Shown here: in pieces, positions 5,901 to 55,507 of the stretch
Layout: each line of letters begins with the position of its first letter
How positions within the stretch are numbered: the stretch's first letter is position 1
Assembly (NCBI GenBank): GCA_946183785.1
Contig: CAMHCS010000013.1
Span: 1-64,000 of the forward strand
Direction of reading: 5' to 3'
Source of the DNA: an uncultured Selenomonadales bacterium
GTDB taxonomy: Bacteria > Bacillota > Negativicutes > Selenomonadales > Selenomonadaceae
DNA: 64,000 nucleotides
The notes under the pieces: generated by a model
What the model was told of the DNA's origin: nothing
The model's input: only the letters and a program-made list of their open reading frames with translations
Databases searched by the model: none
Program-made: the position numbers and the translations under genes

Positions 5901-6857
5901 TCACGCCGCCGAATGTGCGTCCAGCAGCTCTCCATCTGCGCGCGCGTCTTTCCGCACGAAATAATTCGCGAGGAATGAGCCGGACACATTGTGCCACAGG
6001 CTGAAAATCGCGCCCGGCACCGCAGCCAGCGGGTTGAAATACATGACCGCAAGCGACGCTGCAAGACCGGAATTCTGCATGCCGACCTCGATGGCGACAG
6101 CCCGCGCCTTCGCCGGCGCCAGATGGAACACCTTCGCCAGGGTATAGCCGCACAGCAAGCCGAAACCATTGTGCAGAATCACGACGAGGAAAATCAACAG
6201 CCCATGCGCGAAGAGCTTTTCCGCCGACAGAGCGACGACGCCGCCAACGAGCAGAGCAATCGCGATGACAGAAATGAGCGGCAGCACCGGCAGGAACTTC
6301 TCAACGAACTTCCCGGCGAAATGATTGACCAAGAGGCCGGCAATCACCGGGCAAAGCACCATCATAGCGATGGATTTCATCATCGCGACAAGGGAAATGT
6401 CAACCCATGCGCCTGCGAGCACCCAGGTCAGGAACGGCGTCACCAACGGAGCCAAGAGTGTCGTCGTCATCGTCATCGCAACGGACAGCGCAACGTCTCC
6501 CTTCGCCAGATAGGTAATGACGTTCGACGCGGTACCGCCCGGGCAGGTGCCGACCAGCACAACGCCGATCGCGATATCCGGCGGCAGCGAGAAAACTTTG
6601 ACCAACACCCAGGCAATCAAAGGCATCAGCGTGAACTGCGCCAACGCGCCGATACCGACCTCCCATGGCCGCTTCGCAAGCATATGGAAATCCTCAAATT
6701 TCAGCGTCATACCCATGCCGAACATCACGACGCCGAGCATCCACGGCACATGAGGCCCGACCCATGTCAGGGAAGCGGGAACCGTCGCGCCCAAGATCGA
6801 GATCAAAATGATGAGAATCGCCATGTTGTCCACAACAAAATTGCAAAACTTTTTCAT
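5901..6857 (-). CDS. Bile acid:sodium symporter (BASS) family transporter, possible pantoate/ketopantoate importer
   Basis: This 318-residue polytopic membrane protein has about nine to ten hydrophobic helices. The GTCPGGTASNVITYLAKG segment and the later GMQNSGLAASLA helix are the crossing-helix signatures of BASS transporters. AGGAGGG lies 6 bases before ATG 6857. It is the first gene of an operon with panC and panD. PanS of Salmonella, a BASS protein, is known to move pantoate-type precursors. A similar role here is inferred from the operon; other organic anions remain possible. Confidence 0.88.
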   Translation of the reverse strand: MKKFCNFVVDNMAILIILISILGATVPASLTWVGPHVPWMLGVVMFGMGMTLKFEDFHMLAKRPWEVGIGALAQFTLMPLIAWVLVKVFSLPPDIAIGVVLVGTCPGGTASNVITYLAKGDVALSVAMTMTTTLLAPLVTPFLTWVLAGAWVDISLVAMMKSIAMMVLCPVIAGLLVNHFAGKFVEKFLPVLPLISVIAIALLVGGVVALSAEKLFAHGLLIFLVVILHNGFGLLCGYTLAKVFHLAPAKARAVAIEVGMQNSGLAASLAVMYFNPLAAVPGAIFSLWHNVSGSFLANYFVRKDARADGELLDAHSAA

Positions 6858-6897
6858 CAGAATCCCTCCTACAAATAGAACAAAGGAACACGGCTAT

Positions 6898-7092
6898 AAA
6901 AAAGCGCCTCCCGGCAAAGACCGAAAGGCGCAGAAATTTCCTGTGCTAAAAGCCTCTCTGTCTCAGTCCGAAAAAAGATCTAAGCAGACGTTTCCTTATA
7001 GGTACCGCGAATCCAGAAAAGTATAATTCCTAAAACCAAGGATATTATCTCCGTTCCGATGGTAGGATAGCACAACGTCATGGAAATTGCAA
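6898..7092 (-). promoter_or_regulatory. Promoter and terminator-containing leader of the transporter-panC-panD operon
   Basis: Read on the minus strand, TTGCAA (7092-7087) and TATCCT (7069-7064) with a 17-base gap form a possible promoter. About 130 bases downstream, GCGCCTTTCGG pairs with CCGGGAGGCGC and runs into TTTTTT (6931-6898). This is a strong intrinsic terminator ahead of the transporter start. The leader is therefore suited to attenuation. I could not match it to a known riboswitch class. A 33-codon hydrophobic frame (7081-6980) lies inside the same stretch. Confidence 0.5.
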
Positions 7093-11104: not shown

Positions 11105-12907
11105 TTAAATTGTATTTGTTTTCCCCGTCTCCATGGGGCATGGCGCTTCCATCGCCGGGCAGGGGAGGCAGCGGCGCACGTAGACGCATTTGGGGCAATC
11201 GGGCGACCGGACGTCGCGCAGAGCGTTCAGCACAGGGGAACGTTCCCAATATTCCATGACGGAGCCGTATGATTCCGCTTTGCCGTAATCGGCGCAAGGG
11301 ACAAAGCTGCCGTCCGAGCGCACGCAGAAATGGTCCCGTCCGGCGGCGCAGCCGCGCTTGACGCCCCGATTGGCGTTTTGCTTCGCGTCTTCCCCGCCCA
11401 TCATCGCCCGGAGCGGCGAGAAGCAGGACTCCGCCCTCAGCTTCATTTTCTCGCCGCCGTTTTCTTCCTCTTCCCCCCGTTTCGAGTATTCATTGATAAA
11501 CTGCGCCGCGCTTTCCATCTGTTCCCGCGTGGGGAAAGTCCGTCCCGGAGTCCCGCCGCTGACGATAAGCTCCCGAAGGGCGAAGGGCTCCAGCCCCTGC
11601 ACGACTTCCGAAAGTTTTTCCGCGTTTTCCCGCGTCATGATCCATCGCGCAGCCGTCCGATCGGAAAGCCCCGCCCGAAGGAGCGCCCGGACTGTTTCCG
11701 TCGGCTCGCCGTCCTCTCCAAGCTCCGCGATATACGCCTCCGCGCCGAGAGAGAACATCTCCCCCAATCGCGATTCGGGAATGCTTTTCGCGGGCAAAAC
11801 CACCGTCGCCGACAGCCCGCCCAATTTGCATTCCGCCAGCAGCCGAGCCAGATGCTCATACGCCGCCACCTCGCCGAGGAAGCGCACACGGCGGATCCTT
11901 TCCTTCCCGCACTCATAGAGCCGGTTCAGCGCCTCGCCCACGGGAAGCGCCCCCTTCCCGTCCTGCAGCATGAAGTCCACATAAACGGGACGCTCATAGG
12001 CGTCGAAATAGTGATGGTGGACGTAAGGCGACTGCTCCAGGTATGCCTTCGCCTCGGCAATCTTCCCATCCCGATAGTTCAACTTGAAATAAGCAATCAG
12101 CGTTTGGATGAACGGATCGCCGTCGGGGCGGATCCGAATCCAGCGGCGGAGCGCCTCGGCTTTTGACGGCAGGCACAGCCCGGCCGCCTCCAGCCGCGTG
12201 ATGAACATATCGACGAGCAGCGGGTGACGCCAACGGGAAAAGACCTCGACGCCGATTTTCGGCAGCACGCCGTTTTCGCCCAGGTCGATATTGACGGCGA
12301 TCTTTTCCGTCTCCCGCCACGGCGCGAGCGCTTCGCGCAGCGCGGCCGTGTCGCCCCGCCAGCCGATGGCGGCCAGCCCGTCGGGAATCGTTTCCCAACC
12401 GGGAAACATGATTACGAGACGCATGACGTCCAGCTCGCCCCGGCTCGTCATCGTACCGATCTGCTTGAAATTGGCGCCCTTCGGCAAATTTTCCATCACA
12501 CGCTCCAACGGCGCGCGCAATTTTTTTGCCCGTTCCTCGCCCAGGAAAGGCGGCAGGAAAGCATCCCAGGCCGCGGCGTCCTGATGGGCGAATTTAATAT
12601 TTGCAAAAAGGCAGGGCGAGATTTTTTCGCCCGTTTCGCGCGCTTTCCGAAATTCCGCGTAGTCGATTTCATACCAAAGGCTTTCCATGTCGGGAATCAC
12701 TGTCTCGTCGATATTCATGATGTAGTCGACATACCGCGCCTCTTCGCCGAGCCGCACCTCCAGCCCCGCGCCATGGGTGATCGTGTCGCCGTACTGCGTC
12801 TTGACGCTTTCGAGGTCGGCAAGACATTCCTCGTCCATGATCTCCGGTATCGGATGACGATGGAGATGGGCGAGAAAATCCTTCATCGGAAGCTCCTGTA
12901 CGTCCAT
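11105..12907 (-). CDS. SPASM-domain protein with a degenerate radical SAM-like barrel (putative RiPP-associated)
   Basis: This 600-residue protein has three parts. Residues 1 to about 285 form a domain I do not recognise. Residues about 290-500 look like a radical SAM barrel, but no CxxxCxxC cluster motif exists anywhere in the protein and the GGE motif is replaced by FLGE. The C-terminal end (about 520-590) is an apparently intact SPASM domain with cysteines spaced C-x7-C-x9-C, then CPKC, C and CLPC. AAGGAGTG precedes ATG 12907, and a terminator lies directly upstream. It lies downstream of two leader peptides on the same strand. It may be a partner protein for peptide maturation rather than an active radical enzyme; function is inferred. 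Confidence 0.7.
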   Translation of the reverse strand: MDVQELPMKDFLAHLHRHPIPEIMDEECLADLESVKTQYGDTITHGAGLEVRLGEEARYVDYIMNIDETVIPDMESLWYEIDYAEFRKARETGEKISPCLFANIKFAHQDAAAWDAFLPPFLGEERAKKLRAPLERVMENLPKGANFKQIGTMTSRGELDVMRLVIMFPGWETIPDGLAAIGWRGDTAALREALAPWRETEKIAVNIDLGENGVLPKIGVEVFSRWRHPLLVDMFITRLEAAGLCLPSKAEALRRWIRIRPDGDPFIQTLIAYFKLNYRDGKIAEAKAYLEQSPYVHHHYFDAYERPVYVDFMLQDGKGALPVGEALNRLYECGKERIRRVRFLGEVAAYEHLARLLAECKLGGLSATVVLPAKSIPESRLGEMFSLGAEAYIAELGEDGEPTETVRALLRAGLSDRTAARWIMTRENAEKLSEVVQGLEPFALRELIVSGGTPGRTFPTREQMESAAQFINEYSKRGEEEENGGEKMKLRAESCFSPLRAMMGGEDAKQNANRGVKRGCAAGRDHFCVRSDGSFVPCADYGKAESYGSVMEYWERSPVLNALRDVRSPDCPKCVYVRRCLPCPAMEAPCPMETGKTNTI

Positions 12908-12933
12908 AGCTGCAATCACTCCTTGCATTTTTC

Positions 12934-13227: not shown

Positions 13228-13389
13228 GGGAAGCACTGATTAAGTCAAGTCGTGGCCCTGTCGAGGGATTTTTTCGTCAAGCAAGGAAAAGTGCTCGAAG
13301 TCGTAGCAGAGCTACGTCGAGAGCACTTTGACGCAGCATGACGGAAAAAGACCCGTCAGGGGCGCGGCGGGACTTATTCAGTGCTTCCT
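13228..13389. repeat. 162-bp hairpin element, copy 1
   Basis: Terminal inverted repeats GGGAAGCACTGATTAAGTC and (reversed) AGGAAGCACTGAATAAGTC enclose a sequence that can fold almost end to end. The inner stem is GTGCTCGAAGTCGTAG / CTACGTCGAGAGCAC. TA follows the right end; GA lies at the left. It ends 6 bases past the stop of the double-glycine peptide gene. It is nearly identical to copies 3 (44235) and 4 (55346). Confidence 0.9.
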
Positions 13390-13395
13390 TAGATG

Positions 13396-13668
13396 CTAGA
13401 CGCCCATAACGAGCTTGTCAATCTTACGCATCTCGTCCGTTACAAAGTTCGTCGGCGCCGGATACTGCCGGAGCACCTGATCTTTGGGACTGAACTTCTT
13501 GATGAGGCAGGTAATCATTTTCTTTGCGTTGTGAATGGCGCCGGTGACGTCCTTGAGCTGCTTGAAGGACGGGCCGCGAAGCGGGACCCTGACGCGCGGG
13601 CCGCCGCCCGCCACGACGTCCAGCTCGTCCTCGGTCATTACCTTGTTCATGAGTTCTGCGTTCGTCAT
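13396..13668 (-). CDS. Double-glycine-leader peptide (bacteriocin/RiPP precursor-like)
   Basis: This 90-residue peptide begins MTNAELMNKVMTEDELDVVA and is followed by Gly-Gly at 21-22. Leaders of this kind are cut after GG by C39-peptidase ABC exporters. The remaining 68 residues are basic, with one Cys (residue 54) and no known fold. AAAGGAGG lies 8 bases before ATG 13668, fixing the start; an in-frame extension up to ATG 13762 lacks a better site. The SPASM gene lies downstream on the same strand and a second leader peptide (14043-14416) upstream. No exporter or C39 protease is in the window. It may be an unmodified bacteriocin or a RiPP precursor. Confidence 0.65.
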   Translation of the reverse strand: MTNAELMNKVMTEDELDVVAGGGPRVRVPLRGPSFKQLKDVTGAIHNAKKMITCLIKKFSPKDQVLRQYPAPTNFVTDEMRKIDKLVMGV

Positions 13669-14042
13669 TTTCAATTCCTCCTTTGCGATTCGTTGATTCG
13701 CTTTGTCGTTCATTCGGTGATCGGGTTCGCTTTTATCCGAGAGCCGCGTTTCTATATTGTCCATCGGCGTCATCCCCTTTGTGCTTTTCTTTCCGCCCGT
13801 ATATATACGCAAGCCGAAAAATCCTGACAAACTTTTTTGAAAAAAATAATGGCGCCAACTGAAAGAACCGCCTGCACATGCAAGCGGTTCTTCTTCGTAT
13901 AAATCAGGATTTGCCGTTGAACGCTCAATAGTAGGATTCTACCTGGCTGCAGCTGCTTGTTATGCCAGCCCGCCGGCAACACGTACGAGGACTCCGTCTT
14001 CAAGCTCACACTCTGACAACTCATTTGATATAAAACGACATT

Positions 14043-14416
14043 TTATCGGACAATTGCACATGCAACGCCGCCTGCTACATTTTCTAAAACGTTTTCGTCC
14101 AATTCAAAGTCGCCCATCTTATCTAAGGAACCACTGATTAAGTCAATTCGTGCATCTGTCGAGGGATTTTTTCGACTGTCTAGGAAAAGCCCTCGAAGGC
14201 GTAGCATCGCTACGTCGAGAGGGCTTTGACAACGACAGGCGGAAAAAGACCCGGCGGAGGCACGGAGGGACTTATTCAGTGGTTCCCTAAACAGGCTTCC
14301 GCATCTTCTTTTGTAATCTCCTTGCCTTCCGCCTTTGCCAACGCAATCAGTTCATCGGCATCCTTGCACTGCATAGCTTTCATCATCATTTCCTGTGTAA
14401 GTTCATAGACGTTCAA
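14043..14416 (-). pseudogene. Nif11-type double-glycine RiPP precursor gene split by the 162-bp element
   Basis: From TTG 14416 the frame reads a Nif11-type leader (MNVYELTQEMMMKAMQ, then DADELIALAKAEGKEITKED, then AEACL). It then enters repeat copy 2 and stops at 14276-14278. Beyond the repeat the same protein resumes: DKMGDFELDENVLENVAGG and a short core VACAIVR, ending at 14043. Deleting the 162 bases plus one TA joins the halves exactly in frame to give 69 residues. With the insert, only a 46-residue leader fragment can be made. The start codon sits at the broken end of a sensor gene, so its promoter is uncertain. Confidence 0.75.
14126..14287. repeat. 162-bp hairpin element, copy 2 (inside the precursor gene)
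   Basis: Ends are AGGAACC and GGTTCCC, flanked by TA on both sides (14124-14125 and 14288-14289), consistent with a TA target duplication. Compared with copy 1, the terminal repeat changes from AAGCACT to AACCACT and the inner stem from GTGCTC/GAGCAC to GCCCTC/GAGGGC. Both arms changed together, so pairing is kept. Confidence 0.92.
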
Positions 14417-15217
14417 TCTCGTCCCCGGTTTTGACGTCGAGCTTCCTGTCGAGGTTCCCCTTCGCGATTTCCTGCACGCCCGCGTCCAGCGCCAGGATCG
14501 GTTCCACGATGCGTCGCGTCGTCCTGCGGCCGAAATAAAAGAGCGCCGCCATAATCAGGCAGAGGAGCGCCGTCATATAAAGGAAGTTTTCCAAAAAGAG
14601 CCGGTTCAGCGAAGCGACGAAACGCTCCGCTTCCGCCGCCCCCGTCCGCCGGATTTCCATCCCCGAAGCAGATGCGGAGGAAACCTTCTCCATCATGCCG
14701 AAGCTCCAGCCGATGGACGGCAACGGCGCGTAAGCAAGGTTATATTCCCGGCCGTCCACGCTCACGGGCGCCACGCCGCTTTTTCCTTCCGTCATGGCCG
14801 CCGCTTCCTTCGCCAGCCCCGGCTCCGAAGCCATGCGCAGGTCCCGGTCGGCGGACGCCGCCAGCACGCCTTCCCGCTCCGTGGAAACAACCACGCGTCC
14901 CTTCTCGTCCAGCACGAAATTCACGCCGTCGTTCCCGAAGCTCTTTTCCTGCACGAACAGTCGGAGCGCGTCCGGCAGGCTGTCAGCGCCGACGCCTGAT
15001 ACGGCCCGTTCGGCATGCTGCGCTCTTGCTTCTGCCGCAACCAAAGATGCTGCCGGGCGTTTTGCTCGGAAGCGTCCCTGGCGAAGCCGGACACCGTCTC
15101 TCCCATCTTCCGGCTCATCTCCAGCGCGCCCGAGCGCCCCATATAGAGGCTCACCGACATCATCGCCGAAAGGAGCAGGAAAATACTCAGCCCCGCCGCC
15201 AGGACAATCTCGAACAT
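14403..15217 (-). pseudogene. Broken HAMP-domain membrane sensor gene
   Basis: The N-terminal part (MFEIVLAAGLSIFLLLSAMM and onward, from 15217) is in one frame. The rest continues in another frame from about 15045: extracytoplasmic domain VNFVLDEKGRVVVST, a second membrane helix FLYMTALLCLIMAALFYFG, and a HAMP segment ending GDEIERL. The reading frame then stops where the Nif11 gene begins, so the output domain is lost. There is both a frameshift and a 3' truncation. The intact protein was probably a two-helix sensor with a Cache-like domain. The missing output type cannot be told. Confidence 0.75.
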
Positions 15218-15246
15218 CGCCTTCGGACGCGTCCCGAGTTTGCCGC

Positions 15247-15292
15247 GAAAAAGAGCGTGAAACCTCAGATTTCATAAGGCTTCACGCTCTTT
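15247..15292 (-). terminator. Intrinsic terminator after the superoxide reductase gene
   Basis: AAAGAGCGTGAA and TTCACGCTCTTTTT form the stem and T run on the minus strand. Confidence 0.75.
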
Positions 15293-15356
15293 ATTGTGGC
15301 AAACTTGGGATAACCAGCCCAATCATTTGCAATAAAAATAGTCCCCTGCAGCTTAA

Positions 15357-15746
15357 TTAAGCATCCGCTTTCCAGAGCCCGTGCAGATTGCAATATTCAT
15401 AGGCCGCGACGGGCGCGTCCTCTTCCGCCAGTGCAAACGTCGCCTCCGGCGCGTCCCCCGGCGCAAAGAAGTGAAACTGTCCACCGTTTTTCGTCTGCAA
15501 ATAAATCCACTGGATATAGTGTTCCGCCACCATCGGATGCGGCGCGCTTCCGACCCTGACCGTCACTTTGCCGCCTTTTGCCTCGATAACAGGCACATGC
15601 TTTTCCTGTGAAGCATCCGTGGTGTTCGCCGTCAAAAGCTCTGCAGAACCTTCGCCGCAGCAGTCCGCGCTCTCTTTTCCGCCCGGCAGCGCCATCACCA
15701 AACGCCCGCAAGTTCGGCAACGCAAAAATTTCGGCTCAAACCCCAT
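15357..15746 (-). CDS. dfx: Superoxide reductase (desulfoferrodoxin)
   Basis: This 129-residue protein reduces superoxide to hydrogen peroxide without releasing oxygen, a defence typical of anaerobes. The N-terminal desulforedoxin-type site is present as CRTC and CC. The catalytic neelaredoxin site is present as EKHVPV, HPMVAEHYIQW and the CNLHGLW motif, which supplies Cys and His to the iron. Both metal sites appear complete, so it is the two-iron type. It is downstream of a DUF1292 gene, 25 bases apart, and followed by a terminator. Confidence 0.94.
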   Translation of the reverse strand: MGFEPKFLRCRTCGRLVMALPGGKESADCCGEGSAELLTANTTDASQEKHVPVIEAKGGKVTVRVGSAPHPMVAEHYIQWIYLQTKNGGQFHFFAPGDAPEATFALAEEDAPVAAYEYCNLHGLWKADA

Positions 15747-17712: not shown

Positions 17713-17872
17713 AGGAAACGCTGAACAAGTCCTTCCACGCTTCTCTCAGGCTTTACCCGCCTGTCGCCTTCAAGCCCCTCTCAACATAGCAATACTACGC
17801 TCTCAAGGTTCTTTCCCTGACAGACGGAAAATCCCTCGGCCGATGCACGAATTGACTTATTCGTCATTTCCT
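17713..17872. repeat. Hairpin element, copy 5 (decayed)
   Basis: It starts AGGAAACGCTGAACAAGTC and ends GACTTATTCGTCATTTCCT. It keeps the length (160) and the overall inverted layout of the 162-bp family, but the interior has diverged strongly. It is upstream of the SPFH gene. The rest of the 17689-18042 gap contains only AT-rich sequence without a gene I can support. Confidence 0.7.
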
Positions 17873-44234: not shown

Positions 44235-44396
44235 AGGAAGCACTGATTAAGTCAAGTCGTGGCCCTGTCGAGGGGTTTTTTCGTCAGGCAAGGAAAAGTG
44301 CTCGAAGTCGTAGCAGAGCTACGTCGAGAGCACTTTGACGCAGCATGACGGAAAAAGACCCGTCAGGGGCGCGGCGGGACTTATTCAGTGCTTCCT
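44235..44396. repeat. 162-bp hairpin element, copy 3
   Basis: Ends AGGAAGC and GCTTCCT are flanked by TA on both sides (44233-44234; 44397-44398). The stop codon of response regulator 1 spans the right junction, but the same stop forms with or without the element. The sequence is nearly identical to copies 1 and 4. Confidence 0.92.
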
Positions 44397-53835: not shown

Positions 53836-53985
53836 GACTCATCAAGAGCAGTGGAGGGACTGGCCCGATGAAGCTGCGGCAACCATTGAGCAATCAAAAA
53901 GGTGCCAATTCCTTTAGGCGAAGCCTATAAGATGAGAGAAACGCGACCCGGCTCTCATCCCAGGAGCCGGGTTTCTTATTTGGAA
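53836..53985 (+). ncRNA. SAM-I (S-box) riboswitch with terminator, controlling metK
   Basis: The leader has the S-box core CTCATCAAGAG, GTGGAGGGACTGGCCCGATG, GCGGCAACC, GGTGCCAATTCC and a closing GATGAGAG. The closing strand (53931-53938) is exactly complementary to CTCTCATC (53952-53959), which overlaps the left side of the terminator stem CCCGGCTC/GAGCCGGG (53947-53971). SAM binding would hold P1 and let the terminator form; without SAM the antiterminator forms. This shuts down SAM synthesis when SAM is plentiful. Confidence 0.95.
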
Positions 53986-55345: not shown

Positions 55346-55507
55346 AGGAAGCACTGATTAAGTCAAGTCGTGGCCCTGTCGAGAGATTTTTTCGTCAGGC
55401 AAGGAAAAGTGCTCGAAGTCGTAGCAGAGCTACGTCGAGAGCACTTTGACGCAGCATGACGGAAAAAGACCCGTCAGGGGCGCGGCGGGACTTATTCAGT
55501 GCTTCCT
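55346..55507. repeat. 162-bp hairpin element, copy 4
   Basis: Ends AGGAAGC and GCTTCCT are flanked by GT on both sides rather than TA. The sequence is nearly identical to copies 1 and 3, with differences such as GAGAGATTTTTT in place of GAGGGATTTTTT. It lies between the metK terminator and the ftsH stop codon. Confidence 0.9.

What the first reader, a model, noticed from the sequence alone, without database searches (positions are those of the whole stretch)
14043..14416. Excising one element restores a complete Nif11-type double-glycine precursor gene in frame
Before the element the frame ends ...EDAEACL; after it, the frame resumes DKMGDFELDENVLENVAGG-VACAIVR and a stop. Deleting 162 bases plus one TA gives GCC TGT TTA GAT AAG ATG, a perfect in-frame join to a 69-residue peptide with a typical leader and a 7-residue core. 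This proves insertion, its exact borders and TA duplication from sequence alone, and shows that the element inactivated a peptide natural product gene here.
Basis: seen in the sequence. Interest (0 to 1): 0.85.

Follow-up and report, generated by a model that had tools for sequence, protein, structure and literature searches.

The report
Mobile RNA hairpin interrupts peptide gene
A 160-base mobile DNA element sits inside a small peptide gene of a Selenomonadaceae bacterium; three related genomes carry the same site without it, and one strand of the element is predicted to fold into a long hairpin, kept by matched base changes across genera of the family, that likely works as RNA.

Summary
The core observation holds: a short mobile element splits a Nif11-type double-glycine precursor gene, and removing 164 bases closes the frame. 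In three same-genus genomes the flanking matches meet, overlapping by exactly 4 bases. Corrections: (1) The element is 160 bp with a 4-bp CTAA duplication, not 162 bp with TA; 31 of 37 copies show an exact 4-bp duplication. (2) The gene was not complete: relatives encode 71 residues with a native start, here replaced by a broken chemotaxis-receptor gene. Element-free database proteins (P0001-P0003) carry the same junction, so the start was probably lost first; inactivation by the element is unproven. (3) The element is the more interesting part: about 115-123 copies in this genome, ends shared with IS5-type elements of relatives, and fragments of such an IS at three contig edges here. One strand is predicted to fold as a 160-nt hairpin, kept by compensatory changes with G-U favoured over A-C; a model of it matches 74 of 151 family genomes. 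A ~100-nt core occurs inside different transposon ends, once as a near-identical swap in one genome. I read it as a miniature IS5-type transposon carrying a conserved structured-RNA module; its function is unknown.

The parts
14127..14286 (+). 160-bp miniature element (GGAACC subfamily); its plus strand is the strong hairpin strand
   Evidence: inverted ends; copies; predicted fold -102.2 kcal/mol, z -14.8 against -73.1 on the minus strand
14123..14126 (.). target duplication CTAA, left copy
   Evidence: 4-bp overlap at the empty sites of G007, G010, G003
14287..14290 (.). target duplication CTAA, right copy
14276..14416 (-). first half of the precursor: Nif11-type leader, ends GNH-stop inside the element; TTG start at 14416 lies in receptor-derived sequence
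   Evidence: TIGR03798 20.4 bits, cut-off 32.3; relatives
14043..14126 (-). second half of the precursor: end of leader, Gly-Gly, core VACAIVR, stop (the open frame 14043-14207 starts inside the element)
14403..15275 (-). broken chemotaxis-receptor gene, cut within HAMP (profile 2-40 of 53), amino-terminal part in another frame; fused to the precursor gene at about 14406/14407
13229..13388 (+). second copy of the element, GGAAGC subfamily
44236..44395 (+). copy of the element, GGAAGC subfamily, TTAA duplication
55347..55506 (+). copy of the element, GGAAGC subfamily, TGTA duplication
17714..17871 (-). old, decayed copy of the element, no duplication left

Best explanation
A 160-bp miniature transposable element, likely moved in trans by an IS5-type transposase, sits between two CTAA copies inside a Nif11-type peptide precursor gene whose own start had probably already been replaced by a piece of a chemotaxis-receptor gene. 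Shown: the insertion, the 4-bp duplication, empty sites in three relatives, the fused start, an in-frame stop at the fourth codon after the last leader codon, ends shared with IS5-type elements of relatives, and fragments of such an IS end at three contig edges of this genome. Inferred: the transposase (its gene is not in this assembly) binds the 18-bp ends and inserts the element at YTAR-like sites (mostly TTAA); fill-in gives the 4-bp repeat. Also shown: base pairing of one strand is kept by compensatory changes, with G-U favoured over A-C, across genera, and a near-identical core lies inside two different kinds of ends in one genome. Inferred: the element carries a structured core kept for its RNA form; what that RNA does is unknown. 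Effect here: the frame stops before the Gly-Gly site, so no mature peptide would come from this copy.
For: Ends and 160-bp spacing. 110 + 120 end matches in the genome, reversed-pattern control 0; 118 + 128 with a looser pattern. TSD: 31 of 37 identical 4-mers, 25 of these YTAR; 101 of 147 over 13 genomes, 71 of these YTAR. Empty sites with a 4-bp overlap in G007, G010, G003. Fused start. Element-free alleles with the same junction: P0001-P0003. IS5-type partners: L136 in G001, 1225 bp, ends GGAAACACTGAAAAAGTC/GGAAGCACTGAATAAGCC, TSD TAAA, PF01609 + PF05598; L143 in G012, 1263 bp, transposase 66% identical, TTAA on both sides. Own genome: contigs C53, C3 and C9 begin with an IS end like that of L136 (score 49-54, shuffled maximum 24), running into TTAA, TTAA and TAAA; at C53 it lies in an element copy. 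Hairpin: 23 of 53 pairs with double changes in A1 and 40 of 53 in A2; covariation 0.311 and 0.522 against at most 0.091 and 0.130 for slid pairings; one-step WC-to-GU against WC-to-AC changes 41.7: 16.5 and 26.2: 5.0. Family spread 74 of 151 genomes, 18 of 30 genera. Core swap.
Against: No gene for the matching transposase in the window's own assembly; the L136 transposase matched 2 of 10 other same-genus genomes (G001, G004), and PF01609 was absent from 4 of 8 others (G002, G006, G007, G008) although these carry copies. The element interior does not resemble the partner IS. Orientation looks random with respect to neighbouring genes, 18 (+,+) against 18 (-,-) of 67 by a rough gene call, and no significant replichore bias was found in G139, so no host use of the RNA strand is visible. 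The G-U bias is weaker when pair columns are counted: 27 of 53 hold any G-U, 18 any A-C. Six of 37 copies lack an exact TSD. No transcript data.
Confidence: 0.82

Rival explanations
1. One reading: an element of 162 bp with a TA duplication knocked out a complete 69-residue precursor gene.
For: Removing 164 bases closes the frame; TA is compatible with this one copy taken alone. Related elements in G043 and G162 do have TA flanks.
Against: 31 of 37 copies of this family show exact 4-bp repeats of varying sequence; the empty-site matches overlap by 4 bp; partner elements are IS5-type; the gene's start region is replaced.
Confidence: 0.04
2. The hairpin is kept as DNA, not RNA: repair by template switching between the arms keeps the palindrome, or one strand is used as a single-stranded DNA hairpin.
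For: Arms of palindromes can be corrected against each other (recalled), which also makes double changes; G-T is tolerated in single-stranded DNA as well; orientation with respect to genes and replication looks random.
Against: Arm correction should erase the asymmetric internal loops, yet loops such as the CGAAG/GUCGAG one and the GACnACG side recur across genera; it gives no reason for WC-to-GU exceeding WC-to-AC 2.5- to 5-fold.
Confidence: 0.3
3. The element is an ordinary MITE whose hairpin is a by-product (for example a terminator or an RNase III site), and the wide similarity is plain descent plus spread between species.
For: MITE transcripts are known to form stable stem-loops, and Correia elements are cut by RNase III (passages of PMC10969869). 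No orientation bias.
Against: No U-run terminator was called at the element; pairing and internal loops stay conserved although aligned copies differ widely; the same core appears with different ends.
Confidence: 0.35
4. The insertion is neutral debris: the locus was already decaying (fused start, broken receptor, shifted third peptide) and lost no active gene to the element.
For: Fused start in element-free alleles P0001-P0003; receptor frame-shifted and truncated; third peptide frame differs from G007.
Against: Past the first residues P0001 matches the 71-residue relative P0004 throughout, which suggests that the fused gene may still have been used; use of the TTG start cannot be excluded.
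Confidence: 0.5

Closest known systems
IS5 family, IS5-like group (YTAR targets)
   Same: 4-bp YTAR-like duplication; ends beginning GGAA and resembling IS5 ends (recalled); partner elements L136 and L143 with matching ends, L136 with DDE_Tnp_1 and DUF772; IS end fragments at three contig edges of this genome
   Different: The element has no transposase and shares no interior with the partners; duplications are mostly TTAA; the transposase gene itself is missing from this assembly
Bacterial MITEs with hairpin transcripts (Correia, QMITE2, ERIC; review PMC10969869, outline and passages seen)
   Same: Short, non-coding, many copies, whole-length stem-loop
   Different: Here pairing is supported by covariation over eight further genera, with a strand-specific G-U bias, and a core occurs inside different transposon ends
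IStrons (PMC4227781, seen only as a listing with the start of its abstract)
   Same: A structured RNA travels on an IS-type DNA transposon
   Different: IStron RNA is a self-splicing group I intron; no sign of a ribozyme was seen here and the element has no transposase of its own
Nif11-leader RiPP precursors (TIGR03798 / PF07862)
   Same: Leader, Gly-Gly, short core; relative P0066 reaches the TIGR03798 cut-off and is named so by its source
   Different: P0001 and P0017 score 29.2 and 28.7 bits, just under the 32.3 cut-off; core of only 7 residues; maturation enzymes not identified here

Membership tests
MITE | short, no transposase gene | tested here: met
   160 bp; only short frames cross it
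MITE | terminal inverted repeats | tested here: met
   18-bp ends, 1 mismatch between the two ends
MITE | target-site duplication | tested here: met
   31 of 37; 101 of 147
MITE | many near-identical copies | tested here: met
   230 ends; at least 40 full-length copies at 99-100% of the GGAAGC subfamily (which scored 40 candidates)
MITE | autonomous partner with the same ends in the same genome | tested here: inconclusive
   no transposase gene found in G000, but an IS end like that of L136 opens contigs C53, C3 and C9 (78 loci with contig edges examined); whole partners in G001 and G012
IS5 family (as a derivative) | YTAR 4-bp duplication | tested here: met
   25 of 31 exact duplications are YTAR; YTAR as IS5 TSD motif: PMC10359306, passages
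IS5 family (as a derivative) | partner transposase with DDE_Tnp_1/DUF772 | tested here: met
   L136: PF01609 83.9 bits, PF05598 76.5 bits
IS5 family (as a derivative) | transposition by that transposase | not testable with these tools
   needs an assay
Nif11-leader RiPP precursor | score above the curated cut-off | tested here: not met
   P0001 29.2 and P0017 28.7 against 32.3; a relative, P0066, 32.4
Nif11-leader RiPP precursor | leader ending in Gly-Gly followed by a core | tested here: met
   VAGG-VACAIVR in the second half and in relatives
Nif11-leader RiPP precursor | modifying or exporting enzymes nearby | tested here: inconclusive
   a 607-aa SPASM-like protein lies at 11105-12928, below the SPASM cut-off; no search for a transporter
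Known Rfam RNA | match to any Rfam 15 family | tested here: not met
   none at the element at gathering score or at E up to 1

The most novel reading that the evidence does not exclude
The element is a vehicle for a conserved mobile RNA: a core hairpin of about 100 nt with fixed internal loops, selected as plus-strand RNA, that is passed between transposon ends of different kinds (IS5-like YTAR ends, GGG...GTTGGTAAA ends with TA, and once GAGCAAAGTGCA ends with TA) and has spread through much of the Selenomonadaceae, at over 100 copies per genome in two genera.
Probability: 0.35. Interest if true: 0.82.

Novelty: new variant of a known kind. Interest (0 to 1): 0.58.

Why it matters
The interrupted peptide gene by itself is an ordinary MITE insertion with a clear order-of-events lesson. 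The element matters more: MITE hairpins are usually read as by-products of inverted ends. Here base pairs are kept by double changes over many genera, G-U is favoured over A-C, internal loops recur, and one core is found within different ends. If the RNA itself is what is kept, then a bacterial family carries an abundant mobile RNA, absent from Rfam, whose function can be tested directly.

Tried and rejected
TA/162-bp border: rejected by the 4-bp duplications. Transposase gene in the own genome: three PF01609 proteins, none with matching ends; no match to the L136 transposase. Contig edges: element sequence at most of those printed; on rechecking, the start of C53 proved to be an IS end, and edges of further contigs gave two more, C3 and C9. 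Host use of one orientation: no bias in 67 sites (rough gene calls on 1.5-kb flanks, 10 sites lacked a neighbour on one or both sides). Replication-strand use: of 78 positions copied (114 matches in all in G139) 42 are co-directional if the origin is at coordinate 1 (p 0.57); best of any origin 48 of 78, permutation 0.32. Recent copies as a neutral yardstick for G-U against A-C: too few events. Phages: the exact core pattern gave 0 viral contigs; one partial match (56% of the query, 76.7%) in annotated phages. Papers: the listings showed me no description of this element or of an element-split Nif11 gene; only open-licence PMC is held, so this is no proof of absence. Seen: outline and passages of PMC10969869, passages of PMC10359306, the listing entry of PMC4227781.

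Rows dropped: of 44 representative elements, 4 were left out of A1 (window 17714-17871, decayed; L004 1636-1822, a false call across two tandem copies; L211 and L167, with extra bases); this leaves 12 genomes, G007 without a row. The false L004 call is still among the 147 and 99. For A2, 23 of the 30 loci were used (4 near contig ends, 2 partial matches and L274 left out), plus 4 from nearer genomes. Of 83 protein hits 20 were read.

Full report
What is there. The finding is real in its main point. On the minus strand a Nif11-type leader (14416 down to about 14288) runs into a foreign sequence and stops after Gly-Asn-His; 164 bases further on, in another frame, the leader end, Gly-Gly and the core VACAIVR follow. 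The foreign sequence has perfect short inverted ends GGAACC...GGTTCC at 14127-14286, 160 bp.

Borders. With one copy, 'TA + 162', 'TAA + 161' and 'CTAA + 160' all remove 164 bases and cannot be told apart. Among 37 copies (own genome and window) 31 have an identical 4-mer on both sides: TTAA 19, CTAA 3, TTAG 3, others 6. Over 147 copies from 13 genomes (one of them a false call across two tandem copies) 101 have identical 4-mers, TTAA 55. So the duplication is 4 bp and YTAR-like, as described for IS5 (passages of PMC10359306).

Empty sites. In three of the ten other same-genus genomes searched (G007, G010, G003) the two flanks match next to each other and overlap by exactly 4 bp; in the others the site was not found, and several are incomplete. 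Contig lengths identify the three as RUG12372, RUG643 and Tb.RUG.370, uncultured Selenomonadaceae/Selenomonadales. The G007 gene encodes 71 residues starting MPTNKNELT, with AAGGAGG before the ATG.

The start is not native. In the window, similarity to these genes stops at 14398-14406. Upstream is a chemotaxis-receptor fragment. Four of five receptor relatives tested align on the coding strand up to 14406; two of these also align an amino-terminal part in another frame; the fifth (L074) aligned only in an opposite frame, because my script took its longest stop-free stretch. HAMP is cut at profile position 40 of 53. The residues Asn-Val-Tyr of MNVYELTQ come from that receptor sequence. P0001, P0002 and P0003, three of the 20 proteins read out of 83 hits, have the same residues and no element. 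The likely order is therefore: start lost by fusion, then the insertion. I did not see the contigs of these proteins. That the element silenced a working gene is not proven.

The element family. The genome has 110 + 120 end matches (control 0), about 115 elements, or 118 + 128 with a looser pattern. At least 40 full-length copies of the GGAAGC subfamily are 99-100% identical, so spread was recent. In G001 a 1225-bp element has ends GGAAACACTGAAAAAGTC and GGAAGCACTGAATAAGCC, TAAA on both sides and a 330-residue transposase with DDE_Tnp_1 and DUF772. G012 has a 1263-bp relative (transposase 66%) with TTAA on both sides. The interior of the miniature element does not resemble the L136 interior. 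No such transposase gene is in the own assembly, but contigs C53, C3 and C9 begin with an IS end like that of L136 (37 aligned bases, score 49-54, shuffled maximum 24), followed by TTAA, TTAA and TAAA; at C53 the IS end lies within an element copy. So the partner is likely present in several copies and broke the assembly; the highest-numbered contig held is 2862 bp.

The hairpin. The plus strand is predicted to fold end to end at -102.2 kcal/mol (z -14.8), the minus strand at -73.1. In all 99 distinct elements of 13 genomes the plus strand is the more stable. In alignment A1 (40 elements, 12 genomes) 96.1% of cells pair, 23 of 53 pairs have double changes, and covariation is 0.311 against at most 0.091 for slid pairings. 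In A2 (27 elements, 11 genomes, eight further genera) 91.8% pair, 40 of 53 pairs have double changes, and covariation is 0.522 against at most 0.130. G-U cells outnumber A-C cells 184 to 26 in A1 and 99 to 21 in A2. In a strand-neutral alignment of the arms of A1 the ratio is 206 to 72; on trees one-step WC-to-GU against WC-to-AC changes are 41.7 to 16.5 and 26.2 to 5.0. By pair columns it is weaker: 27 of 53 with any G-U, 18 with any A-C. The structures came from the alignments themselves, which favours them over slid versions; the strand-neutral count does not depend on that.

Spread and core. A covariance model from A1 matches 74 of 151 genomes of the family, 18 of 30 genera; in eight chosen genomes it gives 114, 46, 42, 24, 20, 18, 15 and 11 matches. 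G043 and G162 elements have ends like GGGCGTGTTGGTAAA; of 10 copies printed with both ends, 7 have TA on both sides, one has its left flank cut off, and 2 differ. These ends could be drifted relatives of the GGAA...CTGATAAA ends. In G162 one element has quite different ends (GAGCAAAGTGCAGAAA, TA flanks), yet within positions 28-131 it is 96%, 93% and 92% identical to elements with the other ends in the same genome, and the match stops near those points. That is a clear core swap, but a single case: no second copy with those ends was found in the seven genomes searched. Rfam has nothing similar.

What it does. Elements are placed without orientation bias with respect to genes (18 against 18 of 67) and, within power, replication. 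So use of the RNA strand by the host is not visible. Either the RNA serves the element, or the hairpin is kept as DNA; the recurring internal loops and G-U bias speak for the first, the random placement is neutral. Nothing here shows transcription.

Verdict. Insertion real; border, duplication size and 'complete gene' corrected; the fused start probably precedes the element; the element is a new variant of MITE with a conserved structured core.

Noticed in passing
window 13229-13388: A second element copy, GGAAGC subfamily, lies 738 bp from the first; flanks TGAG/TTAG, no exact duplication. A decayed older copy is at 17714-17871.
   Followed up: yes
window 14403-15393: Chemotaxis-receptor pseudogene: amino-terminal part in another frame, cut inside HAMP.
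   Followed up: yes
window 13960-14061: Remnant of a third double-glycine peptide overlapping the precursor end; in G007 (L054 11362-11499) its frame stays open to a 14-residue core (AGITSSCSQAESNY), here it is shifted.
   Followed up: partly
window 11105-12928 and 13396-13830: A 607-aa SPASM-like protein and a peptide gene with VAGGGPRVRVPLRG, both about 90-96% conserved in DNA in four sister genomes: a possible unusual peptide system.
   Followed up: no
window 13777-13845; L054 about 6792-6860 and 11215-11283: A 69-bp stretch present once here and twice in G007, about 4.4 kb apart, suggesting deletion between direct repeats here or insertion there.
   Followed up: no
L004 1499-1822: Two elements of different subfamilies in tandem sharing one TTAA: likely an insertion at the duplication of another copy.
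   Followed up: no
L131 1-60 (G000 contig C53): An IS5-type end runs into TTAA inside the end of an element copy: the IS likely used the element's own end as target.
   Followed up: partly
L054 11717-11847: In G007 a decayed element sits just upstream of the ribosome-binding site of the intact 71-residue precursor.
   Followed up: no
L211 88-267 (G005): A 180-bp element with an extra inner palindrome.
   Followed up: no
window 6954-7051 and 53836-53938: pan motif near a pantoate-beta-alanine ligase gene and a SAM riboswitch.
   Followed up: no
G033: A genome of another family in the class has 36 matches (control 2) to related ends such as GGAACCACTGATTTATTC, probably another element family.
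   Followed up: no
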